From Natronoarchaeum philippinense (lineage in GTDB: Archaea > Halobacteriota > Halobacteria > Halobacteriales > Natronoarchaeaceae), in contig NZ_OBEJ01000002.1 in assembly GCF_900215575.1 (NCBI RefSeq), forward strand, positions 496,001-560,000: DNA of 64,000 nt, written 5' to 3'. Below are positions 3,504-61,350 of this stretch, in pieces; the first letter of the stretch is position 1; the number at the start of each line of letters is the position of its first letter. A model generated the notes under the pieces. The model had not been told where the DNA came from and ran no database searches. It saw nothing but the letters and a program-made list of their open reading frames with translations. The position numbers were made by a program, and so were the translations under genes.

Positions 3504-3560
3504 CGCCTCGACGTGGGCGCCGACGGGGCAAAAACGATGCGACGGCGGTCGACGCACTGC

Positions 3561-3613
3561 GGGACGCCGACGGCCTTCGGCGTCGGAGCGCTGGGACGCC
3601 GACGGCCTTCGGC
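3561..3613. repeat. 21-bp direct repeat with hairpin potential downstream of the response regulator
   Basis: GGGACGCCGACGGCCTTCGG plus one C occurs at 3561-3581 and again at 3593-3613, a 32-bp period. In the first copy GACGCCGA can pair with TCGGCGTC across a 6-nt loop, so it could fold as a hairpin. The two copies lie between the response-regulator stop and the Bax1 start, both read leftward. It may be a terminator or processing signal for the upstream gene, or a small duplicated repeat. Confidence 0.5.
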
Positions 3614-3657
3614 ATCGCCGCGATGCCGTCGACGGAGTGTCGGGCTACTCCTGTCGG

Positions 3658-4272
3658 TCACTCCGAGTTCGGCTGCTCGAACTCGCGGAACACCGATCGA
3701 AAGTCCCTGTCCTCGAAGCGGTACAGCGTCGCCTCTAGATCGCCTTCGATCTCCTCGATCCGGCGCTCGAGTCGGACGTAGGCGTCGCTCCGCTGGAGTT
3801 CGGCGTCCGTGACGTGCTTTTCGAGCACCGACCGTTTCGAGACGTTGGCGAAGTATTCCTGAAGTCCATCTTGGTACTTCGTCCGCGCGAGCAGACGTTC
3901 GACGGTGCCGACGAGCGTATCTCGGTCGATCGGCTTGACGAGGTACTCGTCGAACCCCATCTCGACGACATCGAGGTCGGGATCGATGGCCGTGACGACG
4001 GCGACGGGACACTCCGCGCCGCGGTCCCGCAGCGCGGCGAGCACGTCGTCGCCCGAGACGTTGGGCATTCGCCGGTCGAGCAACAGCACGTCGATCTCGT
4101 CGTCCCACGCCGTCAGCGCCGCCTCGCCGCCGTCGGCCACGTGAACGCGGTAGTCGTCCTCGAGCCACGTGGCGTACAGTTGGGCGACCTGCGATTCGTC
4201 CTCGACGATTAGTACGTCGACTTGCGGTCCGTCCTCGGACGTGCCGGCCGGCGCCTCGGTCATAGCAGCCAC
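3658..4272 (-). CDS. HalX-domain response regulator
   Basis: 204 aa from ATG 4272, or 201 from ATG 4263. The receiver domain has the acidic pair Glu24-Asp25 in VLIVEDESQ, the phospho-acceptor Asp66 in LLLDRRMP, and the lysine of EYLVKPID. The remainder (KYQDGLQEYFANVSKRS onward) is the HalX domain, a haloarchaeal output module of unknown action. There is no adjacent histidine kinase; the closest is at 16242. It is read leftward between Bax1 and the alpha/beta hydrolase. Either DNA-independent signalling or partner binding is possible. Confidence 0.88.
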   Translation of the reverse strand: MAAMTEAPAGTSEDGPQVDVLIVEDESQVAQLYATWLEDDYRVHVADGGEAALTAWDDEIDVLLLDRRMPNVSGDDVLAALRDRGAECPVAVVTAIDPDLDVVEMGFDEYLVKPIDRDTLVGTVERLLARTKYQDGLQEYFANVSKRSVLEKHVTDAELQRSDAYVRLERRIEEIEGDLEATLYRFEDRDFRSVFREFEQPNSE

Positions 4273-18428: not shown

Positions 18429-19147
18429 CGGTTCTGGTAGTTCGGGGCGACCGCGAGTTCCTCGTCGAGCCCGGCGAGGAGTTCGGCACCGATCTGGGCG
18501 TGCTCGACGTGCCCGAAGACGTCGAGCCCGGCGACACGATCACGACCCACCTCGACGAGCCATTCGAGGTCCGACGGCTGCGCTCTCCGGATCTGTTCGA
18601 TCACATGGAGCGGACGGGCGCGCCGATGATGCCGCGAGACATCGGACTGATCGTCGGCCACGTCGGCGTCCGGACGGACGATCGCGTGCTCGACGCCGGC
18701 ACCGGGACCGGCGTGCTCTCGGCGTATCTCGGCCGGATGGGCGCCGACGTGACGACGTTCGAGCAAAAGGCGGAGTTCGCCGAGGTCGCCCGTGAGAACA
18801 TGGACCTCGCGGGCGTCGCGGATCGCGTCGACGTCAACACCGGTGATCTGACCGAGGAACTCGACGATCTGGGTCGGTTCGACCTGCTCACGCTGGACAC
18901 GCAGGACGCCCCTGCGATCGTCGAGCGCGCGCCGGAGCTGCTGGCCGACGGCGGCTTTCTCGCCGTCTACTCGCCGTTCGTCGAGAACGCCCGCGAGGCG
19001 GCGATCGCCGCCCGCGAGGCCGGCCTCTCGAACGTCGAGACCCAAGAGACGATCCAGCGCGAGATGGACTTCGACGACCGCGGCTCCCGGCCCTCGACCC
19101 GCGGCGTCGGCCACACCGGCTATCTGATCTTCGCGCGCAACGTCTGA
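18425..19147 (+). CDS. trmI: tRNA (adenine-N1)-methyltransferase TrmI
   Basis: 240 aa with a GTG start at 18425 inside the nac stop (GTGA). The SAM-binding motif is [15 protein letters not shown] (about 90-104), preceded by the typical substrate-side segment [24 protein letters not shown] is motif IV, where archaeal TrmI usually has LD-x-P. An N-terminal small beta domain ([15 protein letters not shown]) matches TrmI. Family members place m1A at positions 57 and/or 58 of tRNA, stabilising the T-loop. Confidence 0.9.
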
Positions 19148-19232
19148 CGGCCGCTCGCGGTCGTTCCTTCCCAGCAGTTGGTTCCACACCGCGACACAAG
19201 GATTTATGATTGGTTAGTTGATTGACTTTTTC

Positions 19233-19424
19233 ATGCTGTGGATCGTCGCCGTCATCGTCGCCCTACTTCTGATACAGTGGACGGTCGAGTACGTCCTCAA
19301 GAGCCGCGTTCGGGTCTGTACCAATTGCGGGAACTTCTTCAGCAAGCAAGGCTGGTTGTTCGGCTATCCCAGTCCGCCCAGTGCCTGTCCCGAATGCGGG
19401 ACCGACGTTCACCAGTCGGAATGA
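19233..19424 (+). CDS. 63-aa membrane-anchored zinc-ribbon protein
   Basis: ATG 19233 is preferred over an in-frame TTG at 19218 because TTTATG at 19203-19208 lies about 25 nt upstream. Residues 1-20 form one membrane helix (MLWIVAVIVALLLIQWTVEY), then a basic stretch and two cysteine pairs (VCTNCGNFF and ACPECGTDV), a zinc ribbon facing the cytoplasm by the positive-inside rule. The function is unknown. The following gene, on the other strand, ends 37 nt later. Confidence 0.75.
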   Translation: MLWIVAVIVALLLIQWTVEYVLKSRVRVCTNCGNFFSKQGWLFGYPSPPSACPECGTDVHQSE

Positions 19425-19461
19425 GTGCTCGATGGGCACCACAGCGGCGTCGCACCGCGGC

Positions 19462-20022
19462 CTACGCGACGCCGCCGATCAGTTCGATCAACGCGGACTC
19501 GTAACGTTCAGCGTCCACCTCGACACCGAGATCGTCGTCACCCGACGGGTAGGCTCCGCCGGCGATGGTGAACCCGTCGCCGCGCCAGACGGCGAGCAGT
19601 CCCTCGATCGGGACCGCCATCCCGTCCCACTCGTAGCTGGCGGTGTAGACCGTTGCACTCGCGCGCTTGCCGGAGTCGACCGTCAATCGCTGGCGTCCCT
19701 CGCGAGTGACGGTAGACAGCCCGCGGTCGTCGAGTTGGTCGGCAAACGCCCCCTGCGCGGCTGAGGCCACCGTCGGCTGGAGCAGCGCCTCGACCCGGGA
19801 CGACAGCGCCGGAACGAAGGCGAGCCGGGTTGCGAAGAAAAATCGCGTGATCGGCTCGCCCGTCGCCGTCCTGAAGCGCTCGCGGAGCGGGGCGTCCTCG
19901 TAGACCAGCGTGTACCCCTCGACGGCGACGACCGGCAGGCTAAACAGAGTGTCGACGGAGACTTCGACGCACTCCCAGTCGTCGAGTCGGTCGGCGGCCA
20001 CCTGCGGTGGCGTCGCAGCCAT
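19462..20022 (-). CDS. Conserved haloarchaeal hypothetical protein
   Basis: 186 aa from ATG 20022. There is no signal peptide or clear membrane helix. The chain alternates predicted strands and helices (LFSLPVVAVEGYTLVYED ... FFFATRLAFVPAL ... TASYEWDGMAVPIEGLLAVWRGDGFTIAGG) and ends with ALIELIGGVA. No catalytic motif is recognisable and I cannot assign a named family. Codon use and acidity match the neighbours. A degenerate 11-nt-loop repeat is found just upstream (20108). Confidence 0.7.
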   Translation of the reverse strand: MAATPPQVAADRLDDWECVEVSVDTLFSLPVVAVEGYTLVYEDAPLRERFRTATGEPITRFFFATRLAFVPALSSRVEALLQPTVASAAQGAFADQLDDRGLSTVTREGRQRLTVDSGKRASATVYTASYEWDGMAVPIEGLLAVWRGDGFTIAGGAYPSGDDDLGVEVDAERYESALIELIGGVA

Positions 20023-48779: not shown

Positions 48780-49679
48780 TCAGTCGGATTTGCCGGCACG
48801 GTACGCGTCGATTGCGTCCCGGTATCCCTCGCGGTACGTCGGATACACGAGGTCGTACCCCAGCGACCGAAGCCGGTCGTTCGAGCAGCGCTTGCTCGTC
48901 TCGATACGGCGTCGCGCCGCCGCCGAGAGGTCCGGATCGTCGAGCCGTTCGGCTTTCGTTCGCTTCGGCGGTGCGGACTCGCCACACCGCTCGGCCAGCC
49001 AGTCCGCGAAGTCCCACTTCGGCGCCGGTTCGTCGTCGGTGACGAGTACGACGCCGTCCCGGGCGAGATCCTCACCCAGCAGGTACGCCACGGCGCCGGC
49101 GGCGTCGTCGCGGTGAACCATGTTCAGATACCCCTCGGTCACCGGTCCGTCGAGATAGCGCTGAAGCCGATACCGTTCCGGTCCGTACAGCCCGGAGAAC
49201 CGAGCGACTGTGCCGTCGATCCCGTGCTCGGCGGCGTGCTCGCGGGCGATCCGCTCGGCCTCGGCGAGCACTTCAGTCTTCTCGGTGGTCGGCTCGATCC
49301 GTGTCGACTCGTCGACGAACGCCCCGTCGTGGTCGCCGTAGACGCCCGTGCTCGACGTGTAGACGAGCCGATCCGGGGCGTCCTCGCGGGCGCCGAAGTG
49401 ATCGATCGCAGTTCGGAGACCGTCGACGTACACTTCGCGGGCGGCGTCGGCGCCGCGGCCGCCGGAACTCGCCGCGAAGACGACCGCGTCGGCGTCCGGC
49501 ACGGCCGACAGGGCGTCGGCGTCCGTGACATTCGCCTGTACCGCCTCGAAACCGGCGTCTTCGATCGCCGCGACGCCGTCGTCCGATCGCCTGACGCCGA
49601 CCACCTCGTGACCGGCGGCCGTCAGCTGCCGTCCGAGTTCGAGGCCGACGTAGCCACAGCCGAGAATTGCGACGCGCAT
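48780..49679 (-). CDS. NAD(P)-dependent epimerase/SDR (YeeZ-like)
   Basis: 299 aa from ATG 49679. Rossmann motif ILGCGYVGLELGRQL, then VYTSSTGVYGDHDG with the catalytic Ser/Thr and Tyr region, and VARFSGLYGPERYRLQR. The Y-x3-K pair typical of extended SDRs is not clear, which is usual for the YeeZ-like group. The function could be in sugar-nucleotide change or as an NAD-binding regulator. It follows the DUF5791 gene on the same strand with 43 nt between. Confidence 0.82.
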   Translation of the reverse strand: MRVAILGCGYVGLELGRQLTAAGHEVVGVRRSDDGVAAIEDAGFEAVQANVTDADALSAVPDADAVVFAASSGGRGADAAREVYVDGLRTAIDHFGAREDAPDRLVYTSSTGVYGDHDGAFVDESTRIEPTTEKTEVLAEAERIAREHAAEHGIDGTVARFSGLYGPERYRLQRYLDGPVTEGYLNMVHRDDAAGAVAYLLGEDLARDGVVLVTDDEPAPKWDFADWLAERCGESAPPKRTKAERLDDPDLSAAARRRIETSKRCSNDRLRSLGYDLVYPTYREGYRDAIDAYRAGKSD

Positions 49680-49722: not shown

Positions 49723-50154
49723 CTAGCGCTGCCGGTCGACGATGGCGTGCTCGATGGCGACGAACTCGTCGAGCGTCGCCGGCGCGCGGCGTTCGAGTTT
49801 CTGCTGGACCTCCTTGGCGGAGAGGTCGTCGTCGATCTCGTTGGCCAGCGTCTCGACGTCGAGGACGGCCGAGGACATTCCCAGTAGGAGGTGTTCCCAC
49901 GCCATCTCGACGATCGTCTCGGCGTCGGGCGCGTCGGCGTCCAGCGCCTGCAGCGCCGCGGCGTCGCCCACCGAGATGTCGGGCGACTCACCGGCCGTCA
50001 GCGCCGTGACCGCATCACGGTCGACGCCGGTCTCCGCGATGACTGTGTCGACGCCGCCGCCGTCCTCGACGGCCGCGCGGAGAGCGTCGTCGTACTCGCT
50101 TCGCAGGTCCGCGGGCGACAGCCCGTCGGTGTCGAATCGCTGTTCGTGGAGCAT
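49723..50154 (-). CDS. DUF5791-like haloarchaeal protein
   Basis: 143 aa from ATG 50154; a TTG at 50178 is in frame. It is acidic and mostly helical: RSEYDDALRAAVEDGGGVDTVIAETGVDRDAVTAL, then LLLGMSSAVLDVETLANEIDDDLSAKEVQQKLE. The first half may be a small helix-turn-helix (ETGVDRDAVTALTAGESPDIS). Resembles a family I recall as DUF5791. It starts 24 nt after the stop of the 1049-aa gene. Confidence 0.7.
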   Translation of the reverse strand: MLHEQRFDTDGLSPADLRSEYDDALRAAVEDGGGVDTVIAETGVDRDAVTALTAGESPDISVGDAAALQALDADAPDAETIVEMAWEHLLLGMSSAVLDVETLANEIDDDLSAKEVQQKLERRAPATLDEFVAIEHAIVDRQR

Positions 50155-50178: not shown

Positions 50179-53100
50179 TTAGGCGTTACCACTCGGCGTC
50201 TCGGGCGCCGGCATGGCAGCGTCGTCGGGCGCACCGTCGACGAAGCCGGGATCCGGCCAGCCGCCCGAGCGCTCGGTCGGGCTGCCGCCGACGTCGCCGA
50301 CGCCGCTTTTTCCGGCCGGAACGACGACCAACACGGTCGTGTCCGCCCGGAACGCGACTCGCGTCGACCGACCGATCGTCTCGGGGATGCCGTCGCCCGT
50401 CAGGTCGAGCTTTACCGAATCGCCGTCCCGGACGTACGATGTCGTTCCGCCGACGGCACCGCCCGCTACCGGCGTGCCCTGCCGGGCGTCGATCCGGAAG
50501 GTCGCGTACTTACCGGCCAGTTCGACCGTCCAGACGTTCGCCGTCGCGTACCAGTAGCCCGGCACCGGCGTCACCGGGAAGCCGGCCGGCATCTTCGAGG
50601 CGTTCGTCGCAAGCTTCGTTCGGAGGCGCTGTTGCTGTCGCTTGACGGCGTCCTGTGCCATCACTTTCGCTTGTCGACGCGTCTCTTCGACGACTGTTCC
50701 GACGGCGCTGTCGGGAAGTCGCACCGTCTCGCCGGACGCCGCGTCCGAGAGCGTGACGAGCAGTCGCGATCGCAGTCGATCTCGGAACGCCGGCGTCGAG
50801 GGCGTATCGTCGCGCTTGGCGGCAACCCGGGCTACTGCCGCGGCCGCCGAGCCGTCGACCAGCGCGATCGCGCGGGCGCTCGGTGAGTCCCACTCGTTCA
50901 GCGCACCATCGATAATTGCGGTTCGATAGTGGTAGGGAAGCGAAGTCTGCTCCCCGAGTACGCCCAGCGCTTTGCCGCGGAGAACCCGGTTCGAGCTAAC
51001 GAGCTCCTCGCGCAACTGTCGCCGGCTCGCCCCGGCGCCGTCGCTTCCCGACAGCGACGCGACGCCGTCGGCCGCGGCAAGCGCCCGAGCGCTGCGCCGG
51101 AGCCCGACCGTCTCGACGTCGCCGAGCGCGCTGTCGGTGACCGCGGCCGGCACCGGGTTCGCCGGGTCCGCAAACAGGTTCGCTGTCTCGGCGACCAACG
51201 GGTGGTACGTGGCGTTTGCGGGCAGCGTCGAGAGATCGGAGTTGGTGATCGACGCGAGCGTCAGGTACGCCGGCGTTCCGTCGACGCTCAGTCTGATCGA
51301 GTCGGCGGGTGGCGCCGCGGCCGTCGACCGTGGCTCGGCCGCTTGCACGTCGTTTCGGAGCGAGAGCAGCGAGTCGAGGTTCCCGATCGGCGCGGCGCCC
51401 GCGCCGTCCAGCGAACTCTCGACGCCGTTTTGAGTCGCTTCGACATCTTCGGCGGCCGCATCGAGGTCGTCGACGAGTCGGTTGAGGTACGCCACCCGCG
51501 CCGCAGCGCGGGCCTTGTCGGCGACGCTCTCGTAGGACTGATACCGATCGGTTTCGGCGTTACGACGCGCCCGCAGTTTCGCTTCCAGTTCGGCGGCCGG
51601 ATTCACGCCCGTTGCGAGACGGCCCCGGTCGACGGTCACGCTGATGTCACGGGCCGTCTCCCTGAGTTCGACGAGGTCGCGATAGATCCAGTCCCGAACT
51701 GTCGGTGCTGGCGGTCGACCGACGGTGATCTTGCGGTCGTCAAGATCGCCACGAACGGCTGCCCGCGCTGCGGCGTCAGGCCCGCCGGCAGCGTCGAGCA
51801 GCCGATCGACGGCCTCCTCAGGGACGCCGTCGAGGTTTCGGCTTTCCGCCGGGCCGCCGGGTTCGTAGAGTCGCTCGATGCGGTGCTCGGGCACGCGAGC
51901 GCTCCGGGCGGGGTTGCCGACCACCGCGATGCCGACGTGGTGTGTCGTCGTCCAGTTCGCGCTCGTCGTTCGCGTCGATCCGTTTCGGGCGATCCAGCGC
52001 GTCGTTGCGACGTGCTCGCGTGTGACGGTTCGGGCGTGGGCGGCGTACTCGTCCCAGCCGTAGGGGCCGCTCGGCGTCGGCCTGTCGTTCGCTGAGACCT
52101 CAGTAATCGTCTTCGTGACCGATTCGTCGGTCTCCCACCAGTCCGGGCCCGGCCGGGCCGGAGCGACCGATTCGTTGCTGTCGGTGCGTTCGACATCGAC
52201 GACGCGCTCGACGTTGGCCTCGTACAGGTCGTCGACGATTTCGTCCAGCGAATCGCCATCGCGCCCGGTCGAGAGAGCGTCCAGTGCGACGACCGCAGAG
52301 CGGTTGACGCCGACGGTCGTTTCGGATCGCCCGGCTGCGGGCTGGCCGGCCTCAGCGGCTGGCTCGGCAATCTGGCCGCCGCCGTCGACCGGTACGGTCT
52401 GGTCCCCGAGGACGGCGTCGAGCCACCGCTCGCCGTCGTAGCCCGCCCCGGCCAGCAAGTCGGTCGTTCCCACTCGCGCTGCCGCCCGACCCATCGCAGC
52501 ACGGCCGGCGGGGTCGCTGGTCCCGATCGCGGCCCGCTGGGTCTGGAGCAGCGCGGAGTTCGCGCTGAGTTCGACGTGGCGGTTCGCAAGGACGTTCTCG
52601 ATCGGTGCGCCGCCGTACTGGGCGTAGCCGCGCGCCCACGTGATCGCGTACAGCCGCGCGGCGAGGCGCCGGCCGAAGCCGGGGCCGGCGAGCGCGCCCC
52701 GATCGAGTTGCGTCTCGAATCGGGTGGCGCGCTCGTGGAGCGCCAGCGCCGGCGTCGCCACCGAGACGGTTACCGATCGCTCGGTGCGCTCGATCGTCCG
52801 GCCGCGCACGGTCGCTTCGAGCGAGACGTTCTCGACTTCGACGCCGACGACGCCGACGCCGCGGTCGACGAGGCGGACCCGGTCGAGGGCGTCACGCATC
52901 GTCGAGGCGTTCGTGATCGGCTGCAGGTCGGCGTCGACCCGGACGCCGCCGACCGACGCCTCGGTGTCGGCGAGCGCGGCGACCGCCTGCTGGTAGATTC
53001 TGATCCGGAACGCGTCGCGGTACGGGGTCTCGGCGTCGAGCACTTGTCCAAACGTATTGTTCGCGCGCTCGACGACGGGGGCGCTGGCGGCGTTCGCTCC

Positions 53101-53328
53101 GGCACGCTCGACGGCCTGCCGGAGCTCGGTGCGGACGACGCTCTCGGCTCGGTCGATTGCGGGCCCGGCGTCGGCGTCGACCTGCGGCGGGCCGCGGGCC
53201 GAGAGCGCGACCGTCCACGTGACGCTGCCGACGAGCAAGAGCACGCCGAGCAGCGCGAAGGGCACGCGAGCGCGATCGTCCTCGGCCAGCCGAACCCGGG
53301 GGCCGGCGTCCGTCTCGCGCCACTTCAT
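50179..53328 (-). CDS. Giant (1049-aa) DUF7286-like pilus-cluster protein
   Basis: 1049 aa from ATG 53328, chosen since it overlaps the stop of the preceding gene by 4 nt and gives a short basic/acidic N-terminus with one membrane helix (VPFALLGVLLLVGSVTWTVAL). The rest, of about 1000 residues, should lie outside the cell: it is Ala/Asp/Thr-rich and helical with an Ig-like or beta-rich end (WYATANVWTVELAGKYATFR). It ends in a hydrophobic-poor Gly/Pro tail (GDVGGSPTERSGGWPDPG). Resembles haloarchaeal DUF7286. Last gene of the pilus-like cluster; surface adhesin or major structural tip is inferred. Confidence 0.75.
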   Translation of the reverse strand: MKWRETDAGPRVRLAEDDRARVPFALLGVLLLVGSVTWTVALSARGPPQVDADAGPAIDRAESVVRTELRQAVERAGANAASAPVVERANNTFGQVLDAETPYRDAFRIRIYQQAVAALADTEASVGGVRVDADLQPITNASTMRDALDRVRLVDRGVGVVGVEVENVSLEATVRGRTIERTERSVTVSVATPALALHERATRFETQLDRGALAGPGFGRRLAARLYAITWARGYAQYGGAPIENVLANRHVELSANSALLQTQRAAIGTSDPAGRAAMGRAAARVGTTDLLAGAGYDGERWLDAVLGDQTVPVDGGGQIAEPAAEAGQPAAGRSETTVGVNRSAVVALDALSTGRDGDSLDEIVDDLYEANVERVVDVERTDSNESVAPARPGPDWWETDESVTKTITEVSANDRPTPSGPYGWDEYAAHARTVTREHVATTRWIARNGSTRTTSANWTTTHHVGIAVVGNPARSARVPEHRIERLYEPGGPAESRNLDGVPEEAVDRLLDAAGGPDAAARAAVRGDLDDRKITVGRPPAPTVRDWIYRDLVELRETARDISVTVDRGRLATGVNPAAELEAKLRARRNAETDRYQSYESVADKARAAARVAYLNRLVDDLDAAAEDVEATQNGVESSLDGAGAAPIGNLDSLLSLRNDVQAAEPRSTAAAPPADSIRLSVDGTPAYLTLASITNSDLSTLPANATYHPLVAETANLFADPANPVPAAVTDSALGDVETVGLRRSARALAAADGVASLSGSDGAGASRRQLREELVSSNRVLRGKALGVLGEQTSLPYHYRTAIIDGALNEWDSPSARAIALVDGSAAAAVARVAAKRDDTPSTPAFRDRLRSRLLVTLSDAASGETVRLPDSAVGTVVEETRRQAKVMAQDAVKRQQQRLRTKLATNASKMPAGFPVTPVPGYWYATANVWTVELAGKYATFRIDARQGTPVAGGAVGGTTSYVRDGDSVKLDLTGDGIPETIGRSTRVAFRADTTVLVVVPAGKSGVGDVGGSPTERSGGWPDPGFVDGAPDDAAMPAPETPSGNA

Positions 53329-54215
53329 CGGTCCCACGTCCGTACGGTGATCGTCACGCGGCCGGGCGACGCCGCGCCGGCCGCCGCGATTGGATCGTCG
53401 TAGTGCTTCCGAACGTCGGCTTCGAGCGCGGTCGAGAGTCGGTTCTGTAGGCGGGTGTTGACCGCACTGACCTCCTCGGGCGACGGCGTCGACGTGATCG
53501 ACGCGTTGAACGCGTCGGCGGCCAGCCGATACCGGTGGACCGCGAGCGTCGATGCGGGCGGCTGGCCGCGAAGCGCGACGCGCGTGTCGGCCGGCGGGAA
53601 CAGCGTCTGAACGACACAGTCCGCGAACAGTCCCGGCAGCCTGTCGAACCCGTTCTTGCGGGCAGCGAGATCGGCCGCCTCGTTCGTACACCCCGTCGTC
53701 ACCGACACGGCCGTCGTCGCCGCGGTGACATCGGCGTCCGGCGGCGGTCGCGGTCCCACGGCTACGGTCCCGTTGACCGACGACTCGGGGAACGGTTCCC
53801 AGCGCGCAACGACGCGAACGCCGGCGTCGACGACAGCCAGCTGCTCGCTCGTCGCCGCCACGACCCGCTCGGGAAACTCGTCGTGTGGCACGACGCGGTG
53901 TCCGTCGACGCGCGTCTCAGCGACCGCCGCCGCGGCGAGCAACTCGCCGAGCGTCCCGTGAGCCGAACGGCGGTAGGCCGTCTCGGACGCCTCCGGGTAG
54001 GTCGGTGCGGCCTCGCTCGTCACCGAGGGTTGTACCGAGTAGTCGACGGCCGCGGTGCTGGTCGTCAGCACGTCCGCGACCGACGCCGCCGTCCGCTCAC
54101 CGCGGATCTGCTGGCCGCTCGATGGCGCCGCGACGTGGACGCCGACGGCGGCGGTCACGAGCAACAGGCAGGCCACCACGTCAAGCACCGTGCTGACGCC
54201 GCGGTCGGGGCTCAC
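53325..54215 (-). CDS. DUF7284-like pseudopilin-type protein
   Basis: 296 aa with a GTG start at 54215, overlapping the previous gene by 4 nt. MSPDRGVSTVLDVVACLLLVTAAVGVHV is a short polar leader with Arg-Gly followed by a membrane helix, like archaeal prepilins of the TadE/TadF kind. The outside part has a Cys pair (VTTGCTNEAADL and FADCVVQTLFP) that may form a disulfide. Two-part beta/alpha body, no catalytic motif. Resembles DUF7284 of haloarchaeal pilus clusters. Confidence 0.75.
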   Translation of the reverse strand: MSPDRGVSTVLDVVACLLLVTAAVGVHVAAPSSGQQIRGERTAASVADVLTTSTAAVDYSVQPSVTSEAAPTYPEASETAYRRSAHGTLGELLAAAAVAETRVDGHRVVPHDEFPERVVAATSEQLAVVDAGVRVVARWEPFPESSVNGTVAVGPRPPPDADVTAATTAVSVTTGCTNEAADLAARKNGFDRLPGLFADCVVQTLFPPADTRVALRGQPPASTLAVHRYRLAADAFNASITSTPSPEEVSAVNTRLQNRLSTALEADVRKHYDDPIAAAGAASPGRVTITVRTWDR

Positions 54216-54613
54216 GACCAGATCACCGTCTCGAACGTGCCGGTCCGGATCCGCCCCGATCCGACGCGCACCGAGACCAGCCGCGACGCCGTCCTCGCGT
54301 CGCGGGCAGCCGGATCCGTCTCGACGGGCGGCGTCGGCCCGGCGCTCCAGCGGCGCCCACCGACGCGGAGCGAGACGTTCGCCTCGTAGCCGCCCGGGAC
54401 GGTGGCGACGCTCGCGTCGAGTCGGTCCGGAACGACGACGCCGCCGTCGCTGGCTCGTTCGAGGGCGTCGCTCGTCGCCGGCTCGACGATGCTGCGCTCC
54501 GGGCCGGGAGAGCGGTCCAGCAGCGTCGTCGCGTACAGCGACACCGCCAGACAGACTACGGCGGCGGCGAGCAACGCGGGGATCGGCATGACGGCACCGC
54601 GCGTATCCGGCAT
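54212..54613 (-). CDS. DUF7285-like pseudopilin-type protein
   Basis: 133 aa from ATG 54613, or 136 from GTG 54622 which would overlap the preceding stop. MPDTRGAVMPIPALLAAAVVCL is an Arg-Gly leader then one membrane helix (LAAAVVCLAVSLYATTLL), and the outside part is a small beta-rich domain (GGYEANVSLRVGGRRWSAG ... RLVSVRVGSGRIRTGTFE). Resembles DUF7285. The start overlaps the next gene's GTG by 4 nt (TGA/GTG), so the genes are coupled. Confidence 0.72.
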   Translation of the reverse strand: MPDTRGAVMPIPALLAAAVVCLAVSLYATTLLDRSPGPERSIVEPATSDALERASDGGVVVPDRLDASVATVPGGYEANVSLRVGGRRWSAGPTPPVETDPAARDARTASRLVSVRVGSGRIRTGTFETVIWS

Positions 54614-54614
54614 C

Positions 54615-55085
54615 TCAGGCACCCACCAGCGTCGCGTCGATGTCGTCCCAGCTCACCGTCCGCACCGAAAGGCGATCGGGCGAGACGCGCCACGACGGAT
54701 CGCGTGCTCGGGCCCGATCCAGCGCCTCGTCGAACGCTTCGGGCGACTCGAAGACGTGATCCGGCCGGGCGCCACGGAGCAGTTCCCAGAGCATAGTTCC
54801 CTCACGAACCGGCGTGACGGGGCCGTAGGCCAGCGTCTCGAAAGCCGCTTCGTCACCGGATCGGACGCCGATACGGTCGGATTCGATCCGGACCGCATCG
54901 GCCGAGAGCGGATAGGTTCCGGTTCCGGTGTGGCGGCTTCCCGCGACGGCGTCGACGGCGTTGGCCGGGCCCGCGGCGTCCGGCGGCGGTCCGTCGGGCA
55001 GTTGTGCGACGATTCCGACGAGCGACGCCCCGAGTAGGGAGAGCCCGATCCAGACGTACCACGCGTCGGCTGGCGAGTCGAACAT
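54615..55085 (-). CDS. DUF7283-like pilus-cluster protein
   Basis: 156 aa from ATG 55085. MFDSPADAWYVWIGLSLLGA starts with a short leader and a membrane helix (WYVWIGLSLLGASLVGIVAQL), then a linker (PDGPPPDAAGPANAV) and a beta domain with GTGTYPLSADAVRIESDRIGV. Resembles DUF7283. A TTTATACCGGA promoter lies exactly 20 nt before the start codon, so it heads its own transcription unit that continues through the next three genes. Confidence 0.75.
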   Translation of the reverse strand: MFDSPADAWYVWIGLSLLGASLVGIVAQLPDGPPPDAAGPANAVDAVAGSRHTGTGTYPLSADAVRIESDRIGVRSGDEAAFETLAYGPVTPVREGTMLWELLRGARPDHVFESPEAFDEALDRARARDPSWRVSPDRLSVRTVSWDDIDATLVGA

Positions 55086-55105
55086 GGCCCGCTCTCGCCG
55101 CCCGA

Positions 55106-55116
55106 TCCGGTATAAA
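55106..55116 (-). promoter_or_regulatory. Shared promoter element, copy 1 (before the DUF7283-like gene)
   Basis: TTTATACCGGA on the minus strand, followed by 20 nt (TCGGGCGGCGAGAGCGGGCC) to ATG 55085. The 11-mer is identical to copy 2 at 58941-58951 and the distance is the same. Confidence 0.7.
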
Positions 55117-55138
55117 TGCCGGCTCGGTGTGGCGTCGG

Positions 55139-56956
55139 TCAGACCACCAGCCCGGCGGCGACGAACGCCGTCAGATAGATCGCGGTCGCCGACAGCACGG
55201 CGCCGCCGACGCGGTAGCCGACCAGTGCGCGGTCGAGTCCCCGTTCGAGGCCGATCGCCAGCGCGGTCAGGATCGCCGCCAGCGCGAGCGCGTACGCGCC
55301 GACGACCGGGCCGAGCACCGCGGTCGGCACGGCCTCGGCGCCGTCGCCCAGCGCCGCCATCCGGTCGGACAGCGCCACGGTGACGCCGGCGACCAGCGGG
55401 CCGAAGATCGTCGCCGTGCTCCGGAGCGTGCCGGTGATCGTCGCAAGCTCCCGTCGTGCCTCGTCCTCGACCGACCGGAGCTCTTCGAGGTGGCCGGCCA
55501 TCGAGACGATCGCGGTCCCGGCCGGCTTCCCCTCGCGGGCGGCCAGCGCCAACAGCGTCGCCGTGCTCCGGGCGCGCGGGCTGGGAACGTCCGCGAGCGC
55601 GCCCTGATCGCCGAGGAACGACGCCCGGACGCCGATGCGAAGCTGGCGCTGGCGGCCGGCGGCGTCGGCGAGCATCGTGCCGGTCGCGCCGTCGAGTCGC
55701 TCGCCAGCCCGTTCGATCGCCGTCTCGACGGCGGCGCCGTTTCGTACCTCGCGTCCGACGAGATAGAGGGCGTCTGGCAGTCCGTCCTCGACCGCACGCA
55801 CGTGGTCTCGAACTGACGCAATGGGTCGATACCACCACGCCAGCCCCGCGCCGACGCCACAGCCGACGCCGGCGAGCGCACCTGCCCAGCCGCCGATGGC
55901 GCTTCCCGCGACGGCGCCGCCGCTGACAGCCCCTACGAGGCCGACGGCGAGGGGTCGCCACCACGCCCCAGTCACGTCTGGATGCGAGCGATCGACCGGC
56001 GGTGGCGGGAACGCGACGGGACGCCGAAGCAAGAGCCAGCACGCGCCTACGAGCACGACGCCGGGGAGCACGCCGCAGTAGACGACCACCAGCACAGGCG
56101 CGGAGATCGGTACGCCGGCCAAGCGTGCTGCGGGCGCGACCGCGATCAACGCCAGCGGGAGCAAGACGCCGAAGGCGTACAGCGCGGTCGCCGGCTCCCG
56201 GATCGAGCCGGCGAAGCCGGCCATCCGATCGCGCGTCCCGTCGAGCACGGCCCGGAGCGCCCGATCGAGCGATCGGGAGCGCTCCGTGGCGCCCGCCGTC
56301 GCCGCGGCGTCGAGCAGCGTCACCGCCCGCCCGAGTTCCGGGAACCAGCGCTCCCACTCCGCGGCGAAGCCGTCGAAGCCCGCGCGTGCGGTTCCCTCGG
56401 CCCGGCTGGCGTGGCTGGCGAGGCTCTCGGCGAGCGGTCCGTCGCCCGTCTCGGCGGCGAACGCGGCGGCAGACTCGGCGGTCGGCGTCACCCGCATTCT
56501 GAGGACCGCCCGGCCGACGATGCTGGGTGCGGCCCCCAGCGCCAGCGCGCGCCGGGCCGCGGCGAGCACGGGCGGAAGGCGATGGACGGCGTGGATTGCC
56601 CCGAGCGCGGCGACGAGCACGAACAGGACGGCTGCGGGGCGGAACGCCGGCGGCGCCAGCAAGACTGTCGGCGTCAGTGCGACGGCTGCGACCACGGCGG
56701 CGCCGTACCCCGCTTCGACGACGGTTGCGGGGCCGACCGGCAGGTCGAGAAAGGCGAGCGCCCGCCGGAGTTCGACGCTCGCGGTTTCGCTGCCGGGCTC
56801 GCCTGCTGCGTTGGCAGACGCGGACGCCGCGGCGTCGCCGGCATCGGTCCGACGCCGCACCCCACCGGATCTGCCGGGTGTGGGACGTGTCCTGTTTTCC
56901 CCATCTACGTCGACCGGCGAGACACGGGCGAGCGCGTACAGCAGTCGCGCCAGCAT
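55139..56956 (-). CDS. TadC/GspF-like membrane platform protein (duplicated)
   Basis: 605 aa; ATG 56956 overlaps the ATPase stop (TGATG), with GTG 56959 possible. An N-terminal polar region of about 65 residues is followed by two GspF-type domains, each a helical bundle with paired membrane helices. Hydrophobic helices lie at about 85-130 and 265-310 in the first half, and 335-375 and 535-605 in the second. Family helical segments such as VTLLDAAATAGATERSRSL and VSMAGHLEELRSVEDEARREL are visible. It should act as the inner-membrane platform turned by the ATPase. Archaeal FlaJ-like pilus systems carry this duplicated type. Confidence 0.82.
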   Translation of the reverse strand: MLARLLYALARVSPVDVDGENRTRPTPGRSGGVRRRTDAGDAAASASANAAGEPGSETASVELRRALAFLDLPVGPATVVEAGYGAAVVAAVALTPTVLLAPPAFRPAAVLFVLVAALGAIHAVHRLPPVLAAARRALALGAAPSIVGRAVLRMRVTPTAESAAAFAAETGDGPLAESLASHASRAEGTARAGFDGFAAEWERWFPELGRAVTLLDAAATAGATERSRSLDRALRAVLDGTRDRMAGFAGSIREPATALYAFGVLLPLALIAVAPAARLAGVPISAPVLVVVYCGVLPGVVLVGACWLLLRRPVAFPPPPVDRSHPDVTGAWWRPLAVGLVGAVSGGAVAGSAIGGWAGALAGVGCGVGAGLAWWYRPIASVRDHVRAVEDGLPDALYLVGREVRNGAAVETAIERAGERLDGATGTMLADAAGRQRQLRIGVRASFLGDQGALADVPSPRARSTATLLALAAREGKPAGTAIVSMAGHLEELRSVEDEARRELATITGTLRSTATIFGPLVAGVTVALSDRMAALGDGAEAVPTAVLGPVVGAYALALAAILTALAIGLERGLDRALVGYRVGGAVLSATAIYLTAFVAAGLVV

Positions 56957-58920
56957 CACTTGCCGGCCTCGCCGTCGACCTCGGCCCGGTCGCTGTGCTC
57001 GTTCTCTCTGAGGGCGTCGCGTTCATCCCGCCGGCGCACACCGTAAGCGGTCGCCACGTCGGCCGGTCGAGTTCTACTCTCCGTCACCAGACGCTCCAGT
57101 TCGGCTTCGCGGTCCGACAGCAGTTTGCGGATATCGGCGTAGGACTCCCCTGAGCGCCGGAGCCGGTCGAGCAGCCGGCTCTCGCCGCGCCCGATGCGCC
57201 CGGTCGGTTCGAGGATGCCGTCGTGCAGTTCGAACAGCGACGCGAACGCGACGCCGTCCTCCCGGTCGAGCACTTCCTCGACGCGCTCGACACGGCGTGC
57301 GCGCCCCTCGGGGCCCTCGTAGGCCGCGACCGTAACGACGAGGTCCGTCACCGCGAAGGAGGACTCGGGCACGTCGAGGTCGGCGACGACGCGCTCGCGG
57401 ACCGACGCGCCGCCGTCGCCGTGGATCGTTCCGAGGACGGCACTGCCGCTGGCGCCGACGCGCATCGCCTCGTAGAGCACTTGGGCCTCCTCGCCGCGGA
57501 CTTCGCCCAGTACGAGCGCGCCCTCGCCGAGGCGGAGCGCCGTCCTGAGCGCCGCGGTCGGCGTGATGCCCGGCCCGTCGTCGGCGTCGACCGCGGTCGT
57601 TAGCTGCTGTACGTCTCGATCTGTGTCCAGGAGGGCGCCGACGGGCAGCTCGGGCGTGTCTTCGATGACGACCGTCCGCGTCGCGGGCGACAGTTCCCAC
57701 AGCAGGGCGCCGAGCAGCGTCGTCTTGCCGGCGCCGCGGGTGCCGGCGATCAGCCCGGCGCAGGATCGTTCGACGGCGACCGAGAGCAACGCGGCGGCGT
57801 CGGGCGGGAGCGTTCCGTTGGCCACGAGCGCGGGGATCGTCAGCGGCTCGTCGCCCTGATCGCGGAAGACGAAGGCGTCGCCGTCGCTGACGGGATCGGT
57901 GACGCCCGCGACGCGGACCGTCCGGTCGTCTCCGATCTCGGCAGAGGCGGCCAGCGTCGGGCTGGCACGCGAGAACGCCCGGCCGCTCGCGCGGCGGAAC
58001 CGGGAGGCAAGCGCCGCGGCGTCCTGCTCGGTGAGCCGAACGTTCGTCGGGAGCCGGTCGCCGTCGAACAGCACGCGCACCGGGTTGTCATCGACCGGCG
58101 CGGTGGCGAACACGTCCGAGACGGCGGGGTCAGAGAGGAGATCGGAGACGGCGCCGAACCCGCGCGTGTGCTTTTCGAGGATCTCGGTCAGTTCGGTGAC
58201 AGGAGTCCCCTCGTCGGCGACGCGCCGGACGGCACGGCCGGGCGCCCGATCCTCGCCGTCGACGCCGCCCGCTGCGAGCAGTCGATAGGCCGCGGCGAGC
58301 GTCGCTCGCGCGTCGGCATCGAGACGCCACGACGCGGGCAACAGGTGGTAGGTTCGACCGGCGCCCGGCCGCTCGTAGATCCGGGCGTCGCTGCCGGTAT
58401 CGAGCGACCGCGTGTCGAGTAGTCGACCGTCGGCTGGCGGTCTAGCCGCAACCCGGGCGCCGGCGACCGTCGGCCCGACGTAGGGCCGGAGCGCTGTCTC
58501 GTAGCTCGCCGCCGACTCGGCGACGGCGGCCAGCCCGGTTTCGGCGGCGACGCCGCTGATTTGCGATCCTCTGGCGTCGGCGTCGCGGCTGGCTCGCAGC
58601 GGATCGCGGCGTGCACGCTCGGCGAGTCGTTCGTCGCGAAACGCGATCCGCTCGGCGAACCGGCCCGCGGCGACCAGCAGGGCGGCAGCGCGGTCCTCGT
58701 AGGCGCGTTCGACGCCGTCGGTGCGCGTCACCACGCGCTCGGCGTCGCGCTCGGTCAGCGCGTCGACGACGGTTGCCCGACACTTCTCGCTCTCGGCGAG
58801 TTTACCGGCGCCCGCGCAGTCGCCGGCATCCACCCTGAGCGTCTCACCGTCGAACGCCGGGCGACAGCCACAGTACCCGTCGTCGCCGCCACCTCTGATA
58901 CGATCGAGTAGCTTCCGCAT
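56956..58920 (-). CDS. Type IV pilus/Tad-type secretion ATPase
   Basis: 654 aa from ATG 58920. The N-terminal 260 residues are specific and contain a Cys-x-Cys (GYCGCRPAF) and two more cysteines (DCAG, KCRA), a possible metal or iron-sulfur site at the front. The ATPase core has Walker A LIAGTRGAGKTTLLG, Asp box VVIEDTPELPVG, Walker B ALVLGEVRGEEA and the His box VLGTIHGDGG. It should power assembly through the TadC-like platform, whose gene overlaps its stop. A TTTATACCGGA promoter stands exactly 20 nt upstream. Confidence 0.88.
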   Translation of the reverse strand: MRKLLDRIRGGGDDGYCGCRPAFDGETLRVDAGDCAGAGKLAESEKCRATVVDALTERDAERVVTRTDGVERAYEDRAAALLVAAGRFAERIAFRDERLAERARRDPLRASRDADARGSQISGVAAETGLAAVAESAASYETALRPYVGPTVAGARVAARPPADGRLLDTRSLDTGSDARIYERPGAGRTYHLLPASWRLDADARATLAAAYRLLAAGGVDGEDRAPGRAVRRVADEGTPVTELTEILEKHTRGFGAVSDLLSDPAVSDVFATAPVDDNPVRVLFDGDRLPTNVRLTEQDAAALASRFRRASGRAFSRASPTLAASAEIGDDRTVRVAGVTDPVSDGDAFVFRDQGDEPLTIPALVANGTLPPDAAALLSVAVERSCAGLIAGTRGAGKTTLLGALLWELSPATRTVVIEDTPELPVGALLDTDRDVQQLTTAVDADDGPGITPTAALRTALRLGEGALVLGEVRGEEAQVLYEAMRVGASGSAVLGTIHGDGGASVRERVVADLDVPESSFAVTDLVVTVAAYEGPEGRARRVERVEEVLDREDGVAFASLFELHDGILEPTGRIGRGESRLLDRLRRSGESYADIRKLLSDREAELERLVTESRTRPADVATAYGVRRRDERDALRENEHSDRAEVDGEAGK

Positions 58921-58940
58921 GGCCGGTCCTCGCCGCGAGT

Positions 58941-58951
58941 TCCGGTATAAA
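58941..58951 (-). promoter_or_regulatory. Shared promoter element, copy 2 (before the secretion ATPase)
   Basis: TTTATACCGGA on the minus strand, then 20 nt (ACTCGCGGCGAGGACCGGCC) to ATG 58920. Identical 11-mer and spacing to copy 1 at 55106-55116; the 20-nt tails agree at 14 of 20 positions. Confidence 0.7.
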
Positions 58952-58972
58952 TCTGCGCCCGGTCGGTCCGGA

Positions 58973-59437
58973 TTATCTCTCGGACGCGATGCGCTCGACG
59001 ACGATTCGACGGCGCTCGTCTTCGTGCAGCGAGAGGGCGATTTCGTGCGGGCCCGCTCCGTCGAGTTCGACCGGCGTGTCGCCGTCGGTAGTGATCGCAA
59101 CGGGGGTGCTGATGCGACGGACGCGCCGCTTGCCGCCGCCGATTCGGTAGCTGAACAGCAGTGTGCGTTCGGACCGCGCGTCGAGCCGGGCAGCGTCGAT
59201 CTCGGCTTCGTCCCAGCCGCCGCCCGGAAGTTCGATCTCGACGACGCGACGGGCGCCGGGCCGCCCCTCCGGAACTGCCTCGTCGGCCGCGACCGAGCGC
59301 GCGGCGGCTTCGAGACGGTCGACAGCAGTCTCGATCCCCCCGTTGGCGCGGCGCACGCGAGCCCGGTCGATTCCCGGCGTCGCGGCGGCTGCCAGCGCGG
59401 CCGACAGCAGGGTGGCCAGCAGCGTGCGACGGATCAC
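58973..59437 (-). CDS. DUF7311-like small secreted or membrane-anchored protein
   Basis: 154 aa with a GTG start at 59437, overlapping the stop of the preceding gene by 4 nt. An N-terminal hydrophobic stretch (TLLATLLSAALAAAATPG) may be a signal or anchor; it is followed by an arginine-rich helix (IETAVDRLEAAARSVAADE) and a beta domain (RRVVEIELPGGGWDEAEIDA). Resembles DUF7311. It lies between the coiled-coil protein and the ATPase and has no catalytic motif. Confidence 0.72.
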   Translation of the reverse strand: MIRRTLLATLLSAALAAAATPGIDRARVRRANGGIETAVDRLEAAARSVAADEAVPEGRPGARRVVEIELPGGGWDEAEIDAARLDARSERTLLFSYRIGGGKRRVRRISTPVAITTDGDTPVELDGAGPHEIALSLHEDERRRIVVERIASER

Positions 59438-60192
59438 AGCGCGTTCCTGAGCCGGGCGACGATCCCCTGCTCGTCGACGTCCTCGATCGGGTCAGCGTCA
59501 CGCTCGTCGCTGTGGTGGTTCTCTGGTTGGTCGGGCCGAGTGGTGTGGTCGTCGCCTCGGGTGACGCCGCAGTGAGGACAGTGGCGACGGGTATCGGCGG
59601 ATCGGGGGGTAGCAGTCTGCGACCCGGCGGGCTGACGTTGCTGTCGAGGCTGCCTCGGAGCGTTTCGTGTTCGGTGGTCGGTCGCGTGCTCTGTTGCAGC
59701 CCCGTCGCCTCTCGTGGGCGGTCGCCGGCGATCACCGGGCCGGTCGGTGCCGCGTGGGGAGGGATCGGGGCTCGGAGTGGCGTCGTCGCGGCCGATGTCC
59801 GAGGTATCACCACCGCGATCAGCGTCTGGGCGGGAACCATCGCTCTCGGCGTCTTGCGACGGCTTCGGCATCTCGACGCCGCCGTCTTGCAGTCTCTTCT
59901 CGACGGCGTCGAGGCGCTCCCTGATGTCGTCGAGCCCGTCTTCGGCATCGTCGACGGCCGCCAGCGCAGCGTCGGCTCGTGCCGCGAGATCGTCGTCAGT
60001 CGAGCGCACTTCGCCGACGTAGCCCCGAACCGCTTGCAGTCCGGCTTCGATCTCTGCCGTCGTCGATTCGAGGTCGTCGACGCGCTCGGTCAGTTCGCCC
60101 GTCGGATCGACGAGATCAGCGTCGGCGTCACCGTCGGCGACAGCACGCTCGACAGCTCTGAGTCGCTCGTCTACCGCGTCGATGTCGGTCAC
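59434..60192 (-). CDS. DUF7310-like coiled-coil protein with a C-terminal zinc pair
   Basis: 252 aa with a GTG start at 60192. Residues 5-100 are a heptad-rich coiled coil (RLRAVERAVADGDADADL ... LTERVDDLESTTAEIEAGLQ ... LDDIRERLDAVEKRLQDG). A long polar, Pro/Arg/Asp-rich linker follows, then one pair CPHCG and an acidic end (DEQGIVARLRNAL). Resembles DUF7310. Promoter copy 3 (CTTATGTCGGA) lies exactly 20 nt before the start. It begins the pilus-like cluster and may form a scaffold with the ATPase. Confidence 0.75.
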   Translation of the reverse strand: MTDIDAVDERLRAVERAVADGDADADLVDPTGELTERVDDLESTTAEIEAGLQAVRGYVGEVRSTDDDLAARADAALAAVDDAEDGLDDIRERLDAVEKRLQDGGVEMPKPSQDAESDGSRPDADRGGDTSDIGRDDATPSPDPSPRGTDRPGDRRRPPTRGDGAATEHATDHRTRNAPRQPRQQRQPAGSQTATPRSADTRRHCPHCGVTRGDDHTTRPDQPENHHSDERDADPIEDVDEQGIVARLRNAL

Positions 60193-60270: not shown

Positions 60271-61350
60271 ATGAAAGTCGCCCTCGTCGGCGTCGGACAG
60301 GCTGGTGGCAAGGTGACCGAAGCCATCGCCGCGTTCGACGACCAGATGGACTTCGGCGCGGTGCGTGGCGCCCTCGCGGTCAACAGCGCACAGGCGGACC
60401 TCCGATCGCTTTCGCTGGATACCGTGCTCGTCGGGCAGGACCGGGTGAACGGACACGGCGTCGGAGGCGACAACGAACTCGGCGCCGAAGTGATGCAGGC
60501 AGACGCGAATCAGGTGATGAGTTCGCTCGACGGCCGAATCACCGCCGAGGCCGAAGCGATCGTCGTCGTTGCGGGGCTCGGCGGCGGCACCGGCAGCGGC
60601 GGCGCGCCCGTGCTCGCCCGCGAACTCTCGAAGGTCTACAGCGTCCCCGTCTACGCGCTCGGCATCCTGCCGGGCCGCGACGAGGGCTCGCTGTATCAGG
60701 CCAACGCCGGGCGCTCGCTGAAGACGCTGACGCGGGAAGCCGACGCGACCCTACTGATCGACAACGACGCGTGGCACGACGCCGGCGAGAGCGTCGAGGG
60801 CGCGTTCGATGCGATCAATCAGGAAATCGCCCGTCGGGTCGGGCTGTTGCTGGCCTCCGGCGAGGCCGTCGAAGGCGTCGGCGAGAGCGTCGTCGACTCC
60901 AGCGAAGTGATCAACACGCTGCGCGACGGCGGCGTCGCCGCGCTGGGCTACGCCAGCGCCGCCGCCAGCGACGACAGCGCCGACAACATCAACACGGTCA
61001 CGAGCACCGCTCGGAAGGCGCTCTTTACCGGCACCAGCCTGCCCGACGCGACGACGGCCGACGCAGCCTTGCTGGTCGTCGCCGGCAAGCCCGAGGCCAT
61101 CCCGCGCAAGGGCGTCGAGCGCGCTCGCCGGATGGTCGAGGACGAAACCGGCAGTCTGCAGGTCCGAGGCGGGGACTTCCCGCTGCAGTCCGACCAACTG
61201 GCCGCGCTGGTGCTGCTCGGCGGCGTCGAGCGCTCCGACCGGATCGACGAGTTCATGCAGCGCGCGCGGGAGGCCCAGAAGGCTGAAAACGAACCCGAGC
61301 GCGACCCGACCGAACAGTTCCAGAACGACGAACTCGACGGCCTGTTTTAG
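60271..61350 (+). CDS. CetZ-family tubulin/FtsZ-like protein
   Basis: 359 aa from ATG 60271 (MKVALVGVGQAGGK); an in-frame ATG at 60244 would add nine residues. The GTP phosphate loop is GGGTGSGG (104-111), with ALAVNSAQADL, GHGVGGDNELG and LIDNDAWHDAGESVEGAFDAINQEI, closely matching archaeal CetZ. An acidic tail ends the protein. CetZ proteins control cell shape and motility in haloarchaea. The gene is divergent from the pilus-like cluster, starts 78 nt apart. Confidence 0.93.
   Translation: MKVALVGVGQAGGKVTEAIAAFDDQMDFGAVRGALAVNSAQADLRSLSLDTVLVGQDRVNGHGVGGDNELGAEVMQADANQVMSSLDGRITAEAEAIVVVAGLGGGTGSGGAPVLARELSKVYSVPVYALGILPGRDEGSLYQANAGRSLKTLTREADATLLIDNDAWHDAGESVEGAFDAINQEIARRVGLLLASGEAVEGVGESVVDSSEVINTLRDGGVAALGYASAAASDDSADNINTVTSTARKALFTGTSLPDATTADAALLVVAGKPEAIPRKGVERARRMVEDETGSLQVRGGDFPLQSDQLAALVLLGGVERSDRIDEFMQRAREAQKAENEPERDPTEQFQNDELDGLF

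What the first reader, a model, noticed from the sequence alone, without database searches (positions are those of the whole stretch)
50179..60192. Eight-gene type IV pilus/Tad-like machine of unassigned function
Coiled-coil protein, small anchored protein, secretion ATPase, duplicated TadC-like platform and four proteins with one N-terminal membrane helix are read in one direction with 1-8 nt overlaps or near-abutting ends. Seen: the ATPase motifs, the Arg-Gly-hydrophobic leaders of two of the helix proteins (DUF7284- and DUF7285-like), and the tight packing. Known: ATPase plus TadC-type pairs assemble pili or secrete. Inferred: a surface machine whose main outside component is the 1049-aa protein. 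I recognise the small proteins only as uncharacterised haloarchaeal DUFs, so the machine's product appears undescribed.
Basis: partly seen in the sequence, partly recalled or inferred. Interest (0 to 1): 0.7.

Follow-up and report, generated by a model that had tools for sequence, protein, structure and literature searches.

The report
Archaeal type IV pilus gene cluster
This is a haloarchaeon's copy of a widespread, already catalogued but experimentally unstudied pilus-type machine (the pilB2-C2 cluster beside the tubulin gene cetZ2), and comparing it across genomes splits it into an engine part and a set of five surface proteins whose function nobody has tested.

Summary
The eight genes are real and conserved: 62 of 80 named haloarchaeal loci hold all eight in the same order, and DUF7286 occurs in 187 of 242 haloarchaeal genomes. 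But the machine is not undescribed. Its neighbour is cetZ2, and the cluster matches the 'pilB2/C2 type IV pili regulon' of Brown and Duggin 2023 and the 'subclade 4F' pilus system of Makarova 2016, whose function is stated to be unknown. A tree groups the ATPase with methanogen ATPases sharing its cysteine-rich N-terminus, apart from the archaellum and other Pil ATPases of this genome. The 'one operon' reads better as three units, with TATA-like boxes before g1, g3 and g5. Methanogens and one close relative carry g2 and g5-g8 (or counterparts) apart from the ATPase and platform, so the parts are an engine and a cassette of five membrane-helix proteins. Three cassette proteins have Arg-Gly/Ala leaders conserved in most orthologs; two do not. 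Predicted models neither prove nor exclude a pilin fold. Best reading: a pilus or pseudopilus with the 1049-aa protein near the tip; its product remains untested.

The parts
59434..60192 (-). g1, 252 aa coiled-coil protein, DUF7310 (corresponds to the cytoplasmic coiled-coil component of the 4F system)
   Evidence: Pfam PF23991 E 1e-23; conserved position
58973..59437 (-). g2, 154 aa, N-terminal membrane helix, DUF7311; homologous to a methanogen protein that carries a prepilin-like leader, which the haloarchaeal form lacks
   Evidence: Pfam PF23993 E 5e-37; hhalign probability 96.8 with the methanogen protein
58946..58951 (-). TTTATA, TATA-like box 25 nt upstream of the ATPase start
   Evidence: position recurs in a quarter of orthologs
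56956..58920 (-). g3, 654 aa secretion ATPase (PilB2 / subclade 4F) with N-terminal four-cysteine region (C17, C19, C35, C47)
   Evidence: PF00437 E 4e-16; motifs and cysteines conserved in 67 orthologs; tree
55139..56959 (-). g4, 606 aa membrane platform (PilC2/TadC-like), 7 predicted helices
   Evidence: weak T2SSF in orthologs; follows g3, also in methanogens
55111..55116 (-). TTTATA, TATA-like box 25 nt upstream of g5
   Evidence: A/T box about 30-36 nt before g5 in 63% of 79 orthologs
54615..55085 (-). g5, 156 aa, N-terminal membrane helix, DUF7283; Asp/Glu plus Ala/Thr/Ser before the helix, no Arg-Gly leader
   Evidence: PF23954 E 6e-52
54212..54622 (-). g6, 136 aa, DUF7285, R[AG]Q[TV]EP-type leader (RGAV in the window); model is an N-terminal helix plus four-stranded sheet
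   Evidence: PF23956; AlphaFold2 pLDDT 90
53325..54215 (-). g7, 296 aa, DUF7284, R[AG]xS-type leader (RGVS in the window)
   Evidence: PF23955 E 1e-82
50179..53328 (-). g8, 1049 aa, DUF7286, R[GA]R[VI]PFAL leader; the large external component
   Evidence: PF23957 1076 bits; AlphaFold2 pLDDT 82
49723..50154 (-). DUF5791 protein downstream (position fits arCOG04674 of the cetZ2 region; inferred)
   Evidence: PF19104 E 2e-47; near g8 in 75 of 80 loci
48780..49679 (-). sugar-nucleotide epimerase-like gene downstream (position fits arCOG03095; inferred)
   Evidence: sequence; found in 74 of 80 loci
60271..61350 (+). cetZ2, divergent tubulin-family neighbour
   Evidence: PDB 4b45 523 bits against 4b46 330 bits; adjacent to g1 in 48 of 80 loci

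Best explanation
The cluster is the cetZ2-linked pilB2-C2 (Makarova subclade 4F) type IV pilus-type system (identity about 0.95). Mechanism, inferred: the ATPase g3 and platform g4 push membrane-helix subunits outwards. g2 and g5-g8 are a cassette of five pilin-like or pilin-associated proteins; those with leaders (g6, g7, probably g8) are cut by the genome's prepilin peptidase. They form a short pseudopilus, or the initiating and tip complex of a pilus, with the 1049-aa DUF7286 protein as tip or adhesin-like subunit (about 0.5 for this mechanism). The coiled-coil protein g1 and CetZ2 are likely cytoplasmic partners that regulate or place the machine. Shown here: gene content, conserved order, ATPase orthology, leaders, modular splitting. 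Not shown: processing, a filament, or a function.
For: Families. Neighbour is CetZ2. Order conserved in 62 of 80 loci. Literature match: PMC9856176 and PMC4858521 (coiled-coil protein, FtsZ-like neighbour, cysteine-rich ATPase N-terminus, S-layer-like protein). ATPase tree: a branch with SH-aLRT 100 holds haloarchaeal g3 and methanogen ATPases, with the archaellum and other Pil ATPases outside. Leaders resemble the processing sites RAVS, RAQI and KGQV listed in PMC4371748. A prepilin peptidase family member is in the genome. Cassette homology to methanogens for g2, g6, g7 and g8, probabilities 97-100 with off-diagonal under 3. Separation of engine and cassette in methanogens and in G033.
Against: No pilin match for the g6 model (best matches ribosomal protein uS3, Z 8.4); for g8 only Z 4.2 to a Thermus competence pilin over residues 49-192, tied with unrelated hot-dog folds. 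g2 and g5 lack the canonical leader, and g8 has Arg at +1. None of the five is a Pilin_N protein. No experiment on this locus was found.
Confidence: 0.7

Rival explanations
1. The engine assembles PilA-family pilins encoded elsewhere, and g2/g5-g8 only start and cap that pilus; the product is an ordinary adhesion pilus variant.
For: The genome has about a dozen Pilin_N matches, none in this cluster. PilB3-C3 of Haloferax volcanii works with pilins in trans, and Makarova assigns mostly stand-alone major pilins to subclade 4F.
Against: No Pilin_N gene is linked to this cluster in the window, and a pairing of ATPase and pilin cannot be tested from sequence alone.
Confidence: 0.25
2. A type II secretion-like pseudopilus that exports proteins or remodels the cell surface, with DUF7286 in the role of the large tip pseudopilin GspK.
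For: Several small helix proteins plus one large one, overlapping and nearly always together; no PilA-type pilin in the cassette.
Against: No secreted substrate or channel identified; haloarchaea have a single membrane; the g8 model is not matched to GspK.
Confidence: 0.2
3. Part of the archaellum or a bacterial-type Tad system.
For: The best NCBIfam hit of the ATPase is TadA (TIGR03819) and it also hits the archaellum motor FlaI.
Against: These hits are far below their cut-offs (119.7 against 373 bits, 90.7 against 550). The genome has a separate archaellum-like locus with FlaH-, FlaI- and FlaJ-like genes and an archaellin-like gene, and g3 lies outside that group in the tree.
Confidence: 0.02

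Closest known systems
pilB2/C2 type IV pili regulon next to cetZ2 in Haloferacales and Halobacteriales (Brown and Duggin 2023, PMC9856176)
   Same: cetZ2 neighbour, ATPase, platform, several predicted pilins and a surface protein, and flanking hypothetical and epimerase genes
   Different: Nothing found that sets this copy apart; the DUF composition, the three units and the engine/cassette split were not in the passages read
Archaeal T4P subclade 4F (Makarova, Koonin and Albers 2016, PMC4858521)
   Same: Cysteine-rich ATPase N-terminus, TadC, coiled-coil protein, FtsZ-like neighbour, shared with Methanomicrobia
   Different: No PilA-family major pilin in the cluster here; arCOG numbers could not be assigned with the tools
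Haloferax volcanii PilB3-C3 and PilB1-C1 adhesion pili; Halobacterium salinarum pil-1
   Same: Same class of machine
   Different: Described as other ATPase clades with other pilin sets; those have tested adhesion roles, this one has none that I found
Type II secretion minor pseudopilins GspH-I-J-K
   Same: Set of overlapping genes for small and one large membrane-helix protein (analogy from own knowledge)
   Different: No sequence or fold match found

Membership tests
Archaeal T4P subclade 4F / pilB2-C2 regulon | Secretion ATPase of the archaeal VirB11/PilB family with intact motifs | tested here: met
   PF00437 above cut-off; Walker A, Asp, Walker B and His boxes almost invariant in 67 orthologs
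Archaeal T4P subclade 4F / pilB2-C2 regulon | ATPase groups with methanomicrobial ATPases that have a cysteine-rich N-terminus | tested here: met
   One branch, SH-aLRT 100; methanogen members carry 11-15 Cys before Walker A; four Cys 97% conserved in haloarchaea
Archaeal T4P subclade 4F / pilB2-C2 regulon | Cognate TadC-type platform next to the ATPase | tested here: met
   g4 follows g3 in haloarchaea and methanogens; T2SSF likeness is weak
Archaeal T4P subclade 4F / pilB2-C2 regulon | Coiled-coil protein and FtsZ-family (CetZ2) gene in the locus | tested here: met
   DUF7310; CetZ2
Archaeal T4P subclade 4F / pilB2-C2 regulon | Dedicated PilA-family major pilin (arCOG02981 or arCOG10216) | tested here: inconclusive
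   None in the cluster; about a dozen Pilin_N matches elsewhere in the genome cannot be assigned
Type IV pilins (PibD substrates) | Charged residue plus Gly/Ala directly before an N-terminal hydrophobic helix | tested here: met
   g6, g7 and, with Arg at +1, g8; not g2; g5 has only an acidic residue plus Ala/Thr/Ser
Type IV pilins (PibD substrates) | Cleavage by PibD | not testable with these tools
   Only the peptidase family's presence in the genome is shown
Type IV pilins (PibD substrates) | Pilin fold | tested here: inconclusive
   g6 and g8 models, no clear PDB match
Archaellum | ATPase of the archaellum clade in an archaellum operon | tested here: not met
   Separate archaellum-like locus in the genome; tree
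Bacterial Tad system | TadA above the NCBIfam cut-off | tested here: not met
   119.7 bits against 373.15

The most novel reading that the evidence does not exclude
The cetZ2-linked cluster is a distinct pseudopilus-type machine, guided by a tubulin-family filament, in which a separable five-protein cassette without any PilA-type pilin builds a tip-like structure around the 1000-residue DUF7286 protein.
Probability: 0.15. Interest if true: 0.7.

Novelty: already known. Interest (0 to 1): 0.35.

Why it matters
The system is in about three quarters of the haloarchaeal genomes sampled and in methanogens, yet no function has been tested that I could find. Naming its exact parts (DUF7310, DUF7311, ATPase, platform, DUF7283-7286), the engine/cassette split and the CetZ2 link gives clear deletion targets in Haloferax volcanii, whose genome also has the DUF7286 and DUF7283 families, and would let several Pfam DUFs be annotated as pilus-system components.

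Tried and rejected
Foldseek and VIA searches of the g6 and g8 models gave no usable relative; the uS3, SecB and hot-dog matches were set aside as common arrangements. Homology among g2, g5, g6, g7 and g8 was tested in five pairings by profile comparison and not found; DUF7285 has a faint likeness to DUF7287 (8 of 59 members, best E 9e-4), a lead only. PDB sequence search with DUF7286: nothing. No paper in the library mentions DUF7286, and HVO numbers that I tried as a guess for the neighbours of cetZ2 led to no functional data. Halobacterium salinarum 'pilB2' (pil-2, OE1347R; 7 co-transcribed ORFs, 6.9 kb, 8.5-fold up in adherent cells) was not used as evidence: its size and three prepilins fit another (4C-type) locus better, so the shared name is probably a trap (inference). 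The literature labels PilB2 of Haloferax differently (4C in PMC6491452, while PMC4858521 puts the FtsZ-linked systems in 4F); which label is right was not settled. A high A-over-T skew at 8-11 kb of the window proved to lie over grpE- and dnaK-like genes.

Full report
What is there. On the minus strand between 60192 and 50179 lie eight genes: g1 252 aa (DUF7310 coiled coil), g2 154 aa (DUF7311), g3 654 aa (T2SSE-family ATPase), g4 606 aa (platform), g5 156 aa (DUF7283), g6 136 aa (DUF7285), g7 296 aa (DUF7284) and g8 1049 aa (DUF7286); families. Downstream follow a DUF5791 gene and an epimerase-like gene; upstream and divergent is a tubulin-family gene.

Not chance. DUF7286 occurs in 187 of 242 haloarchaeal genomes sampled and in the Haloferax volcanii control genome; DUF7283 occurs in 176 of 234 and in the same control. 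A scan of named genomes gave 80 loci. In 62 of them all eight genes stand in the same order and direction, and four more differ only by the midpoints of overlapping hits; eight of the remaining fourteen are contig-end or small-contig cases and the other six are rearranged or split (my count). The window's DUF7286 protein is 32-40% identical to the orthologs aligned.

What it is. The neighbour is CetZ2: it matches PDB 4b45 with 523 bits and 4b46 with 330; that these entries are CetZ2 and CetZ1 is from my own knowledge, as the file calls both FtsZ. [quoted passage not shown] Makarova and colleagues (PMC4858521) describe a halobacterial subclade 4F pilus system with a cysteine-rich ATPase N-terminus, a coiled-coil protein, an FtsZ-like neighbour and an S-layer-like protein. 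The window fits both. A tree of 47 ATPases puts g3 of haloarchaea and the methanogen ATPases with 11-15 cysteines before Walker A on one side of a branch with SH-aLRT 100, with the other Pil and archaellum ATPases of this genome on the other side; the tool warns of long branches, and the HALO_L037 row is a fragment. Four N-terminal cysteines of g3 are 97% conserved in 67 orthologs. The archaellum of this genome is a separate locus.

Organisation. Genes overlap by 4-8 nt except for gaps of 52 nt before g3 and 53 nt before g5. In both gaps TTTATA stands 25 nt before the ATG. In orthologs a run of six A/T about 30-36 nt upstream is found before g1, g3 and g5 in 31, 25 and 63% and before the other five genes in 0-2%. 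I read this as three transcription units: g1-g2, g3-g4 and g5-g8 (inference; no transcript data).

Two modules. In methanogen genomes (L117-L121) homologs of g2, g6, g7 and g8 are clustered, mostly in the same order, with another small helix protein in the place of g5, while g3-g4 homologs lie elsewhere. Profile comparison gives 96.8, 97.4, 97.7 and 100% probability on the diagonal and under 3 off it; g5 and its methanogen counterpart are not related by this test. In G033, of the window's own family, cetZ, g1, g3, g4, a g5, DUF5791 and the epimerase are at one site, while g2, g5, g6, g7 and g8 are at another (L165, L166). G077 has a full cluster and a second g5-g8 set (L173, L174). So g2 travels with g5-g8, which makes five cassette proteins.

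Are they pilins? g6 keeps R[AG] before the helix in about 95% of loci, g8 R[GA]R in about 97%; g7 has R[AG] in just over half of the aligned loci, partly because start codons are uncertain. The sites resemble processing sites listed for known archaeal pilins (RAVS, RAQI, KGQV). g5 has [DE][ATS] only, and g2 lacks the leader that its methanogen homologs show. The g6 model (pLDDT 90) has an N-terminal helix, two further helices and a four-stranded sheet, but its best PDB matches are to ribosomal protein uS3 (Z 8.4). The g8 model (pLDDT 82) has an alpha/beta region near the N-terminus that reaches Z 4.2 with a Thermus competence pilin, level with unrelated folds. I treat the fold question as open.

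How it most likely works. g3 and g4 form the assembly motor and platform; cassette proteins are inserted through their N-terminal helices, at least g6, g7 and probably g8 are trimmed by the prepilin peptidase found in the genome, and they build a pseudopilus or a pilus-initiating tip complex, with DUF7286 outside. The shaft may be made of PilA-type pilins from other loci, of which the genome has about a dozen candidates. g1 and CetZ2 are the likely cytoplasmic partners. All of this paragraph except the gene content is inference.

Novelty. The system is known and catalogued; its function is not.

Noticed in passing
L165:2113-9543 and L166:4863-10427: In genome G033 the cluster is split: the cetZ site keeps g1, g3, g4 and a g5, and a second site holds g2 and g5-g8.
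   Followed up: partly
L122:16519-17394 and 18806-19801; L127:3-938, 1537-2346, 2951-3775: Short stand-alone ORFs of about 270-330 aa that match the DUF7286 profile (in L122 only its C-terminal part, positions about 815-1011).
   Followed up: no
L117:1-6549: Near the methanogen cassette, a run of about eight further small helix proteins, several with Gly-Gln leaders, apparently including a partial duplication.
   Followed up: no
window 58920-58780 (g3 residues 1-47): CxC-X15-C-X11-C at the ATPase N-terminus, 97% conserved; might bind a metal.
   Followed up: partly
G056, G012, G125; L014: Partial or stop-interrupted DUF7286 genes, which suggests that the system is being lost in some lineages.
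   Followed up: no
L131:6473-10687 (own genome, C2 near 686 kb): Another ATPase of this genome sits in a 1404-codon open frame, fitting the PilB4 type with extra domains (inference).
   Followed up: no
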